A stretch of DNA of 64,000 nucleotides, from contig CP126197.1 of the NCBI GenBank assembly GCA_030272155.1, positions 372,001 to 436,000 of the forward strand. The letters are read 5' to 3'. The stretch's first letter is position 1; each line of letters opens with the position of its first letter. The notes beneath the pieces were generated by a model that saw only the letters and a program-made list of their open reading frames with translations, was not told where the DNA came from and searched no databases. The translations under genes were made by a program, and so were the position numbers. Below are positions 1-64,000 of this stretch, in pieces. This DNA comes from Tetradesmus obliquus (Eukaryota; Chlorophyta; Chlorophyceae; Sphaeropleales; Scenedesmaceae).

Positions 1-2386
1 AGCACATTCACCAGCAGCATTTTGCAGCTGAGCGGCTACGCAGCAAGGATCCCAGCAACAGACAATGTACTTTAGCACAAAAAGTACAGGTGCCTGGCGC
101 TGGTGCAATAGGTGCTCACCTGTGACAGCAACTGCCCCGCGCAAAATGAGGCAGAACTCGTGCGGCAGCCCATCAACAGCTGTCTCCAAGATGTTGAGCT
201 CGATGTCAGTCAGCCGCTGCAGCTGCAGCTGCCGCTGCAGCAGCAGCACAGCCGGCCCCAGCTGGTGCAGCAGCGGCCCTGCCAGCAGCCCCAGCCTGCT
301 TGAGCCGTGGACCACTGCTGCAGCATTGCCCATTTCCTCAGCTGCTGCTGCTGCTGCTGGGGTGTGTGGCGCTGCCTTCAACAGAACGCGCATGCGCTTT
401 GTAAGCAGCTTACTACACACAGCCTGTGCCTGAGCCAGCTGGATATTTGCGCTGTCTGTTGGCTGCACTGCAACGTCCACGGCTGTCAGTAACAGAGGCT
501 CCAGCCAGGGGGGCAGATCCGCTGCTGGCTGCCCTGCAGCAGCACTGCCTTCACCAGTGCTGCTGCTGCTGCTGCTGCTGCTGCTGCTGCTGCTGCTGCT
601 GCTGCTGCTGCTGCTGCTGCTGCTGCTGTTGCTGTTGCTGTTGCTGTTGCTGTTGCTGTTGCTGCGGCTGCTACTGCTGCCGCTGGTGCTGCCATGGCCA
701 CTGACGCTGCTGTCACTGCTGTGATAGCTGCCATCAATGTTTGATATGTGGGCTAAGTAGCCAGGCAGCAGCTCTGACAGCCGCGCACAGCAGTCAATGA
801 AGTTGCTGTTGACACACAGACATATTCTGCAGCACCAGTGAGTGCCGCTGTTGCTTTTTACAGCAGCACGGGCTGCAGGTGACCAAGACCTAACGCAGCT
901 AGCAACCGTCTGCCTATGCTGCACCTGCTGGAAGTCCTGCTGCTGCTGCTGCTGCTGCTGCTGCTGCTGCTGCTGCTGTTGCTGCTGCTGCTGCTGCTGC
1001 TGCTGCTGCTGCTGCTGCTGCTGCTGCTGTGCGTGTTGGCGGCTTGCACCTGCACAGCGACATAGGCCAGCTCCTCAACCAGCGCCTCAATAATCTCTTT
1101 GCAGTGTGCAAGCGGCCGCTGTCGCACTGAGCACCGGCCGACCGGTACCTCGCCGACAGCTGCTGCTGGTGGTGGTGGTGCTGCTGCTTCTGCTGCTGCA
1201 CCAGCAGCCGTCTGCTGCTGCTGCTGTTCAAGGGATTGCATCTCGCGCAAATCACACAGGAGCGCATCAAGCCGTGCGTAGCCTACATCAAACACCTGAT
1301 CTGACTTGCTTTTGTCCCAGTGAATGACGGCCCGCAGCAGAGGCAGCACCAGGGCAGCTGCTGCGCAGTGCACCTGCAGCAGGTTGCTGCTGCTGCTGCT
1401 GCTGCTGCTGCTGCTGCTGCTGCTGCTGCTGCTGCTGCTGCTGCTGCTGCTGTTGCAGGCTTGTGAGCCGTGCTGACACGCTGTAGCAGGCTGTGCAGGC
1501 AGCGTCTGCCAAGCCTGCATGCATGCAGGGAAAGAGGATGCAAGGCTTGGCACAACGCCAGAGCGTCATTGAAGCTTCATTTCACTGCAAAGTGTCGCTG
1601 GCCAAGCAAGAAAAACACGACATATAATGTGGAGGACATATACACATTGACACTGCGTGCTCGTTTCACTGAAGCAGCTGGGGTTTGTTATGACAAGGGG
1701 TGCCTCTCGCTTGCTGTGCGGCAGTGCGCTGGCGGGCAGCAATGCGCTGCACTTCCTGCAGACAACACTGCTCTACAGCAGACTCCATGCTGAAGTTCAT
1801 CACATCACCCGAGAGCACCGTGCACTCCATGGGCAGGGCAGTGGGTGCTGTGTTGCCCACAACATGGCGCCACCACTTTGCCTGTCACAGCCATAGTATG
1901 CATACTTGCAACGACTTCGGGAATTCACAATTATTGGCCATCATAAAGTGTGCCAAAACTTGACCCACCAGAGTCAACCAACTGTGTTTCTGAGTGCTGC
2001 TGCCCAGCATCTGCTGATGGGCTAGCAGTGCTGGACATCAGCAGCAACTGGACCTCTTTCACCACCAGCATAGCCCATCGAGGCACGTCCTGCTGCTGCT
2101 CCATAGCCTGCTGCAGCAGCTGCAGGCCGTTGCGCAGCGCAGATGACTGCAGCAGCAGCAGCTCTGTGTTGCTGGCCGAATGCTGCTTCGCCAGCTGTCT
2201 TAGCTTGCTGTAGGTGTCTGCACTGTCAAACTGTGCAAGGTCTGGTGCAGCTGACAGCTGGGACAGCAGCTGCTGGAGCTGGTGCAACCTTGATTTCCTG
2301 GCAGTTGTTGTGGCCATGACTGATGCCTGTAGCTGCTGGCCTTGCTGTTTGATGCTTAACTCCTGCACCTCTTGCTGCTGCTGCAC
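1..2386 (-). CDS. Partial Ser/Gln-rich helical protein gene, runs off the left end
   Basis: I do not recognise the family. Coding-like minus-strand stretches are: about 1977-2386 (Gln/Leu-rich helices, contains VPRWAMLVVKEV); about 1690-1881 (contains KWWRHVV and LPMECTVLSG); about 925-1373 (contains RAVIHWDKSKSDQVFDVGY, then a Ser run); and 120-826 (starts RICLCVNSNFIDC, a Ser/Asn run, then PPWLEPLLL, ending before a GTGAGC donor at 119-114). The 925 donor and 826 acceptor join in frame (AG+A gives Arg), so the CAG tract there is probably translated as poly-Ser. Joins between the more upstream pieces are unresolved, and the start may lie as far right as about 2750, where a further segment (contains QWYHVISWQL) is found. 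Amphipathic Leu-rich helices suggest a HEAT/ARM-like fold, which is inference. The gene is divergent from the secreted Cys-rich gene. Confidence 0.4.
556..662. repeat. CTG trinucleotide tract with a (GTTGCT)n tail
   Basis: An uninterrupted CTG run is followed by alternating GTTGCT. On the minus strand this falls inside the partial left-edge gene and reads in frame as Ser, then Ser-Asn repeats. Confidence 0.9.
938..1030. repeat. CTG trinucleotide tract
   Basis: About 30 CTG units with one GTTGCTG interruption. On the minus strand it reads as poly-Ser with one Asn in the open frame of the left-edge gene, directly before its exon end at 925. Confidence 0.9.
1384..1453. repeat. CTG trinucleotide tract
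   Basis: About 22 CTG units. On the minus strand this is a CAG run just upstream of the putative exon start at 1373. It is either intronic or a further poly-Ser tract; the frame is open in both readings. Confidence 0.85.
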
Positions 2387-2836
2387 CTGATTAGCCAGAA
2401 ACTCTGTCCCTGATGCCGTTCAGCCAACAACGTCGCACACAGAATGAAGGCGTGCTTCACAGCCGTTATAAATGTTGCTCAGAATCAGCAGTTGCAGCAG
2501 CTGTAGGCGCAGCTTCCGCTGCTGCTGTGTCAGCTGCCAGCTGATCACATGGTACCACTGGCTTCCCGCGTCTTCCGTTCCCTTGCGGGCGGAACTTCCG
2601 ACACCAGATGAGGGTTGAGTTCGCTCGTGTTTGAGTGTAAGTAAATGTTGAAAGCGTTTGTTTCCGCCCGTGCTGATCCCTGCTTTGCAACAGAAGTGAA
2701 GTGCCGTTGGCACCTCAGGTGACAGCCCTAGCACCACAGCTGCTCCACCTGTTCGTTCAAACACAGTTCGAAGGTCTTGCTTTTATATTCACAGCTCGTC
2801 ACATAGCTCATCTATCGACACGAGTATCACGACACG

Positions 2837-63700: not shown

Positions 63701-64000
63701 ATCTAAACGCTAGCACACTGTCTGGGATCCTGTTGCTGCTGTAGGATCCCGCTCAATGGGCGAGTGAGGAGCTCGGTCCGTCGATGTGATGATGCCAACG
63801 GGTCGCACACCTCACGGGGCAGCAGACACCCAGTCCAGTCACTTTTCTGCGGTGTGATTTGCTGCAAGTTTGCTGCGAACTCTTGAAACGTGGCGCATAT
63901 TCCTCGAAGAGACTAACTAGTATTTTCGGCGCCATCGGCGATCACACCTCCCCGTGGTCTCGCGTGAGCATGCCGCAACTTCCAACCTGAAGATATGTCA
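63701..64000. promoter_or_regulatory. 5' flank of the P450 fusion gene at the window's right end
   Basis: Presumed 5' UTR and promoter. A 60-codon minus-strand frame starting at 63935 (MAPKILVSLFEEYAP) ends at 63753 before the P450 start; it could be an upstream open reading frame or part of another transcript, but I cannot support either. Confidence 0.35.

What the first reader, a model, noticed from the sequence alone, without database searches (positions are those of the whole stretch)
1..64000. Widespread duplication of exon edges with a preferred spacing of about 90-135 bp or twice that
In nine of the window's genes, diverged direct copies of an exon's own end (with donor), start (with acceptor) or stop-codon end lie in the adjacent intron or flank. 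I count more than 30 cases in unrelated genes (RBM28-like, Gln-rich, MED20, pectate-lyase-like, PIG-C, HISN4, P450 fusion and others). Measured spacings cluster: 103, 104, 106, 107, 110, 110, 110, 111, 112, 112, 114, 115, 117, 119, 119, 119, 121, 121, 121, 129, 131, 133, 134, 135, with a second group at 212-242. A common duplication mechanism acting at exon-intron junctions, perhaps with a nucleosome- or resection-sized step, would explain this. I know of no described system with these properties.
Basis: partly seen in the sequence, partly recalled or inferred. Interest (0 to 1): 0.88.

Follow-up and report, generated by a model that had tools for sequence, protein, structure and literature searches.

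The report
Duplicated exon edges in algal introns
In this green-alga genome, short pieces of genes that include an exon end and its splice site have often been copied into the neighbouring intron, nearly always at least 100 bases away; the pattern is real and widespread, but it looks more like local tandem duplication filtered by selection than a machine aimed at exon edges.

Summary
The window (64 kb of a 104.66 Mb, 17-contig genome, very probably the green alga Tetradesmus obliquus) has 30 exon-associated families of local direct copies; twenty other 10-kb regions and eight P450 loci of the same genome have 59 more. Pairs are direct, not inverted (185 versus 1). Exon edges have a nearby copy in 106 of 686 cases, exon interiors in 18 of 303, introns in 126 of 2446. 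Spacing starts abruptly near 99 bp: 62 of 89 families lie at 99-160 bp, 14 at 215-275, and both groups recur outside the window. Copies mostly lie toward the intron.

The intron half was duplicated too, but decays, while exon half and splice site stay about 90% alike. A paralogue of the window's P450-reductase gene has single exons where the window has arrays, so those arrays are derived.

Best reading: short tandem duplications across exon edges, tolerated because the outer splice site still works; exon halves stay alike through constraint plus exchange between copies (inferred). The size floor, and codon-level constraint in a subset of copies that should be dead, are unexplained. Not intron birth by AGGT duplication in general, nor a dispersed element where tested; an assembly artefact is unlikely but not excluded.

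The parts
45965..46124 (+). HisF (HISN4-like) exon end with donor (junction 46003) and its inner copy at +121
   Evidence: relatives' protein reads through the outer edge
46408..46591 (+). HisF exon start with acceptor (46532) and upstream copy at -119
   Evidence: only these two places found in the genome
46973..47239 (+). HisF exon end with donor (47021), about 2.3 copies at 117-bp steps
47307..47463 (+). HisF exon start (acceptor 47414) and upstream copy, spacing 106
7046..7232 (-). RRM-gene (RBM28-like) exon start with acceptor (7094) and upstream copy, spacing 133
   Evidence: only these two places found in the genome
6234..6565 (-). RRM-gene exon end with donor, two copies spaced 239; the differences are all third-position in the frame chosen
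50153..50468 (-). P450-reductase gene: exon end and downstream copy, spacing 268; single in the paralogue
50609..51089 (-). P450-reductase gene: exon start with acceptor, 4.3 copies at 112-bp steps; single in the paralogue L031
51089..51985 (-). P450-reductase gene: exon end with donor in about 3.5 units of 213-226 bp; single in the paralogue
52057..52353 (-). P450-reductase gene: exon start with acceptor (52112), copies spaced 113 and 120
53640..54361 (-). small exon with both splice sites, about 5 copies, 135-bp steps
54691..54833 (-). exon copy pair, spacing 104
57796..57968 (-). copy pair in the P450 part of the fusion gene, spacing 105
   Evidence: P450 matches nearby
58083..58233 (-). 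exon-start copy pair, spacing 120
62207..62382 (-). exon-edge copy pair, spacing 115
25390..25551 (+). exon start with acceptor (25517) and upstream copy, spacing 119
26407..26682 (+). small predicted exon duplicated, spacing 130
20217..20578 (+). three copies, spacings 159 and 129
21917..22469 (+). small predicted exon with both splice sites, 2.3 copies at 232-242 bp steps
3697..4075 (+). exon with donor, two copies spaced 241
34471..34798 (-). exon end with donor, two copies spaced 250
16232..16400 (+). exon end with donor and downstream copy, spacing 120
32503..32651 (+). exon start with acceptor and upstream copy, spacing 109
48919..49072 (+). exon end with donor and copy, spacing 107
45484..45644 (+). 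exon start with acceptor and upstream copy, spacing 110

Best explanation
The genome undergoes frequent short local tandem duplications in direct orientation. In genes the unit is almost always 99 bp or longer, with a mode near 115 and a second group near 240. Many units run from inside an exon, across its splice site, into the intron. The extra copy then lies inside the intron and the outer splice site still joins the correct exons, so the protein is unchanged and the duplication can persist and lengthen the intron. Afterwards the intron half diverges. The exon half and the splice site stay similar because the functional copy is held by selection and because the roughly 50-bp repeats keep exchanging sequence by slippage or gene conversion, which also builds arrays of more than two copies. 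SHOWN: direct local copies in all regions pooled, with this spacing; direction into the intron; an intron half also duplicated in many pairs; a paralogue without the window gene's arrays; no copies elsewhere for three exons tested. INFERRED: survival because splicing is unharmed, exchange between copies, and any cause of the 99-bp floor.
For: Direct versus inverted 185:1. The 25 of 185 pairs that align over >=0.9 of the unit have mostly the same spacings as the partial ones, and most carry an extra partial third copy. At spacing 95-150, where the partner is not itself a predicted junction, donor copies lie downstream 25 versus 6 and acceptor copies upstream 26 versus 9 (all spacings 34 versus 7 and 43 versus 17). 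Intron-side similarity beyond the first 8 bases exceeds same-type unrelated junctions: above the null's 95th percentile in 12 of 33 donor and 24 of 42 acceptor events (p=1e-10 and 3e-15), and exon-side identity does not differ between events whose intron side still aligns and those where it does not (0.88 vs 0.86; 0.89 vs 0.90). Three exons searched have only their tandem copies. Paralogue L031 has single exons where the window has arrays, with 168 bp between two matched blocks against 1233 bp. Introns with copies are longer (median 372, n=23, versus 294, n=171, introns of at least 150 bp; p=5e-4), though a long intron also has more room for a copy. Relatives' HisF proteins join at the outer edges.
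Against: Exchange between copies is not directly shown. In 21 of 33 donor and 18 of 42 acceptor events no intron half can be recognised. Differences between inner and outer copies are more synonymous than a dead inner copy predicts: 141 of 258 (0.547 versus 0.409), and 7 of 40 pairs with three or more differences have no amino-acid change (1.3 expected; 4 of the 7 in L016). This is uneven: the window alone shows 18 of 54 (0.333), and without L016 the value is 0.512. At another position the paralogue has a 372-bp intron where the window gene has none, so intron length does not differ in one direction only. The 99-bp floor and the second group have no demonstrated cause.
Confidence: 0.57

Rival explanations
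1. A mutational process targeted at exon-intron junctions with a fixed step.
For: Edges 106/686 versus interiors 18/303; spacing onset at 99 bp; second group 14 observed versus 3.3 expected from flanking bins (p=9e-6; outside the window 9 versus 2.2, p=4e-4); noncoding-only families broader.
Against: Random placement already gives 62 of 127 junction contacts against 85 observed; an intron half is duplicated too in many pairs; selection against in-exon copies would produce the same bias.
Confidence: 0.13
2. Plain tandem duplication followed by neutral decay of the inner copy, with no exchange between copies; the exon edge is visible longer only because one copy is constrained.
For: Window pairs look neutral (18 synonymous of 54 differences); no clear frame preference of spacing (13/13/8 modulo 3).
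Against: Exon-side identity near 0.9 even where the intron side is unalignable; by my estimate one constrained copy gives less than a two-fold rate difference.
Confidence: 0.15
3. Inner copies are functional: alternative or nested splicing uses them, so their codons and splice sites are kept.
For: Inner GT kept in 21 of 25 and AG in 19 of 25 at spacing 95-150 (6 of 9 and 12 of 17 at 150-300); synonymous excess; nested order exon end, copy, copy, exon start seen by eye in HisF introns and L016.
Against: Reading through the outer HisF exon end at 46003 meets a stop at once (read); most inner copies are not joined to the rest of the exon; several carry amino-acid changes; in the window the synonymous excess is absent; no RNA data here.
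Confidence: 0.12
4. Assembly or haplotype artefact: pieces of a second haplotype left unmerged beside exons.
For: Allele-like divergence pattern (exons and splice sites similar, introns not) and an onset at a round 100 bp.
Against: Families with 3 to 7 copies (18 of 74); complete arrays; 17 contigs with N50 6.1 Mb listed for the matching assembly; no N in the 291 kb read at that point.
Confidence: 0.09
5. Intron birth by tandem duplication of an AGGT segment (Rogers model).
For: A few introns fit: the window array intron at 50653-50764 and one in L002.
Against: Only 7 of 544 introns exceed the null's 99.9th percentile (0.5 expected) and 4 of the 7 are CAG repeats; the usual order is an edge copy inside a larger intron.
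Confidence: 0.04

Closest known systems
[quoted passage not shown] ATP2A1; potato RdRp, PMC4974935, abstract and passages seen)
   Same: Local tandem duplication across or beside splice sites; the potato case duplicates an intron-exon structure.
   Different: Here the outer, original splice sites give the known protein (checked for HisF) and the copies sit inside an existing intron; the donor-flank-equals-acceptor-flank signature is rare (7 of 544); some 30,000 cases genome-wide by extrapolation from 291 kb.
Short tandem duplications made at DNA breaks (PMC8355091, abstract start and passages seen; PMC5730883, listing only) and intronic minisatellites
   Same: Direct head-to-tail short duplications with array growth.
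   Different: Units in genes seldom below 99 bp, two size groups, exon edges over-represented, similarity confined to the exonic part in most pairs. Sizes were not compared with those papers' data.
Internal gene and tandem exon duplication (recalled)
   Same: 20 of 76 families contain a complete predicted exon.
   Different: Most copies hold only part of an exon and could not be spliced in as that exon.

Membership tests
Short tandem duplication / minisatellite | Copies in direct, head-to-tail orientation | tested here: met
   185 direct versus 1 inverted pair at score >=60
Short tandem duplication / minisatellite | Adjacent copies alike over the whole unit | tested here: inconclusive
   25 of 185 pairs aligned over >=0.9 of the unit, 160 only in part; intron part above the null's 95th percentile in 12 of 33 donor and 24 of 42 acceptor events
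[quoted passage not shown]
   7 of 544 introns, 4 of them CAG repeats; met in one or two single cases only
Introner or other dispersed mobile element | Copies at unrelated places in the genome | tested here: not met
   Three exons searched (HisF, RBM28-like, L016): only the tandem copies found; the 112-bp array matched one further place, in a paralogue; the search skips common words
Alternative (mutually exclusive) exons | Copy is a complete exon with acceptor and donor | tested here: inconclusive
   20 of 76 families in the 99-160 and 215-275 classes hold a whole predicted exon
Alternative (mutually exclusive) exons | Inner copies appear in mRNA | not testable with these tools
   No RNA data held
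Assembly artefact | Copies absent from single long reads or another assembly | not testable with these tools
   No reads or second strain available here

The most novel reading that the evidence does not exclude
Intron-borne copies of exon edges keep their splice sites and, in a subset, their codons although they are not part of the known protein. They would be either used in stepwise (nested) splicing or kept in concert with the real exon by exchange so frequent that selection on the exon reaches its copy. The floor near 99 bp would then be the smallest distance at which a second splice site is tolerated.
Probability: 0.2. Interest if true: 0.85.

Novelty: new variant of a known kind. Interest (0 to 1): 0.62.

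Why it matters
If it holds in a second assembly, this alga is a natural experiment with about three exon-associated duplication families per 10 kb (89 in 291 kb; roughly 30,000 genome-wide by extrapolation). It would let one measure how close a second splice site may lie before selection removes it, how introns grow, and whether exchange between tiny repeats lets selection reach non-functional copies. It also warns that gene annotation here may call false exons: my own gene finder called the inner copy at 46413-46460.

Tried and rejected
Codon model from long ORFs alone: only 12 ORFs, too weak. First HMM collapsed into tiny exons; it was replaced by one with minimum intron 70 and minimum exon 21 bp, trained on the same DNA it was used on, so its splice calls are approximate and inner copies are sometimes called exons. 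Intron birth by AGGT duplication: rejected as general. Recursive splicing at AG|GT: by my reading of the lists the acceptor-type copies start with GT no more often than usual (no separate test), so not general. Nested insertion of a whole intron with exon flanks: both-sided introns 2 of 194, one-sided 21, no significant co-occurrence (Fisher p=0.18). The 240-bp group as 2 x 120 with a lost middle copy: a middle match above the null's 95th percentile in 3 of the 15 families printed before the script stopped. The 240-bp group as whole-exon units: 5 of 14 versus 15 of 62, not different. Whole spacing distributions of exon-associated and noncoding-only families do not differ by a KS test (p=0.16); only the share at 99-160 bp (p=0.004) and below 99 bp (p=0.005) do. 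Inner-inner codon bias (81 of 176 at third positions) counts shared branches more than once and was not relied on. The intron-side null mixed junction types; one search repeats the test with same-type junctions and is the one cited.

Literature: ten searches, seen as listings; passages seen in PMC8355091, PMC12571836 and PMC4974935. None of the listed titles and abstract starts described this pattern; most subscription journals are not held.

Full report
WHAT WAS CHECKED. The window is C7:372001-436000 of a 104.66 Mb, 17-contig genome. A published table lists Tetradesmus obliquus GCA_030272155.1 with 104.70 Mb, 17 contigs, N50 6.1 Mb and 56.5% GC (PMC12571836, passages); I infer that this is the genome. 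As an independent sample I took twenty 10-kb regions at round coordinates on contigs 1-6 and eight P450 loci, in all 291 kb with the window.

THE COPIES ARE REAL AND WIDESPREAD. With short-period repeats masked, direct pairs within 1.5 kb number 40 in the window, 126 in the twenty regions and 19 in the P450 loci; inverted pairs 1, 0, 0; locally shuffled DNA none. The density is the same inside and outside the window (6.25 and 6.3 per 10 kb). For one HisF, one RBM28-like and one L016 exon, no copy was found elsewhere in the genome except the tandem partner.

SPACING. Only 4 of 185 pairs are under 100 bp apart; the histogram rises abruptly at 100 and peaks at 110-120. Grouped into families (score >=40, up to 700 bp), 89 are exon-associated, 13 noncoding only, 8 coding only. 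Of the 89, 62 lie at 99-160 bp, 14 at 215-275, 5 below 99, 5 at 160-215 and 3 above (spacing of the best pair; by smallest spacing 6 are below 99). Outside the window the counts are 40, 9, 4, 3 and 3 of 59. The second group exceeds the flanking bins (14 versus 3.3, p=9e-6; outside the window 9 versus 2.2, p=4e-4). The 13 families without any exon are broad (54-402 bp).

EXON EDGES. I wrote a small HMM gene finder and trained it on this DNA. It found CAG|GTGAG donors and the HisF exons that relatives' proteins support, plus at least one false exon on an inner copy. Fifty-base segments with a copy within 700 bp: edges 106/686, exon interiors 18/303, introns 126/2446, intergenic 9/171, reversed control 4 of 3606. 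Placing the observed pairs at random gives junction contact in 62 of 127 against 85 observed, and noncoding-only pairs 39 against 20. At spacing 95-150, where the partner is not itself a predicted junction, donor copies lie downstream 25 to 6 and acceptor copies upstream 26 to 9, that is, into the intron.

ANATOMY OF A COPY. In 51 events at spacing 95-150 the exon part is 25-95 bp in 40 (median 50) and the recognisable intron part has a median of 11 bp. Similarity falls soon after the splice site; inner copies keep GT in 21 of 25 and AG in 19 of 25 (6 of 9 and 12 of 17 at spacing 150-300). Beyond the first eight intron bases, similarity still exceeds that between same-type unrelated junctions (12 of 33 donor and 24 of 42 acceptor events above the 95th percentile; p=1e-10 and 3e-15), so an intron part was duplicated in many pairs and has decayed; in the rest none can be seen. 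Exon-part identity does not depend on whether the intron part still aligns. Of 185 pairs, 25 are complete, most with a partial third copy, as expected if the short repeats themselves slip.

POLARITY. The window's P450-reductase gene has a paralogue on contig 15, found through the 112-bp array and fetched as L031. Where the window has copies at 50161, 50722, 50834 and 50958 beside the exon at 50429-50656, inner units near 51240, 51466 and 51680 beside 51889-52053, and a copy at 52185 beside 52072, the paralogue has single exons. Between two matched blocks lie 168 bp in L031 and 1233 bp in the window. Those arrays are therefore derived, most simply after the paralogue split. The comparison also cuts the other way: L031 has a 372-bp intron (5767-6138) inside a region that is one exon (51903-52111) in the window, and that intron carries its own repeat pair spaced 149 bp and, by eye, a short copy of the upstream exon end with its donor. 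Whether this intron was gained in L031 or lost in the window is open.

THE UNEXPLAINED PART. If inner copies were dead, 41% of differences in the exon part should be synonymous. Observed: 141 of 258 (0.547, bootstrap 0.47-0.63), 0.512 without the dense locus L016 (0.43-0.60), but 0.333 in the window alone. Pairs are heterogeneous (P=0.005): of 40 pairs with three or more differences, 7 have no amino-acid change (1.3 expected; 4 of them in L016) and 1 has only amino-acid changes (4.4 expected). In the 213-bp family two inner units differ from the outer exon only at silent positions in the shared part, while a third has amino-acid changes (alignment read by eye). A subset of inner copies thus looks constrained. 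Frequent exchange with the functional exon, function in splicing, or allelic origin could each cause this; the data here do not decide.

VERDICT. The interpretation needs less: short tandem duplication across exon edges, kept where splicing is unharmed, with exon halves preserved longer than intron halves. A junction-seeking mechanism is possible but not needed. The cause of the 99-bp floor and of the 240-bp group is open.

Noticed in passing
L016:4300-9500: A beta-eliminating lyase (PF01212; tryptophanase-like by recall) gene with very dense exon-edge and whole-exon duplications, including about four copies each of two exon segments; possibly of bacterial origin (recalled resemblance, not tested).
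   Followed up: partly
L031:5767-6138 versus window 51903-52111: A 372-bp intron in the paralogue where the window gene has none; it holds a repeat pair spaced 149 bp and, by eye, a short copy of the upstream exon end with its donor: a candidate recent intron gain or loss.
   Followed up: partly
window 3' intron ends, e.g. 46375-46412: Acceptors are often preceded by (CTG)n rather than a plain pyrimidine tract; the trained acceptor profile shows the three-base rhythm, though CAG-rich coding sequence may have leaked into training.
   Followed up: no
L020:1-1135: A noncoding tandem array of about seven units spaced mostly 191 bp, 84-100% alike.
   Followed up: no
L031:682-892: A nearly perfect two-copy tandem duplication of 105 bp (98%) in the paralogue region, apparently very young.
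   Followed up: no
L002 (reverse strand, intron of 254 bp): A P450 intron whose 3' end resembles a decayed copy of the upstream exon end with the acceptor AG, a possible case of intron birth by tandem duplication.
   Followed up: partly
window 37992-38552 and 39840-40577: Two neighbouring reading frames of similar sequence (by eye) without a Pfam match.
   Followed up: no
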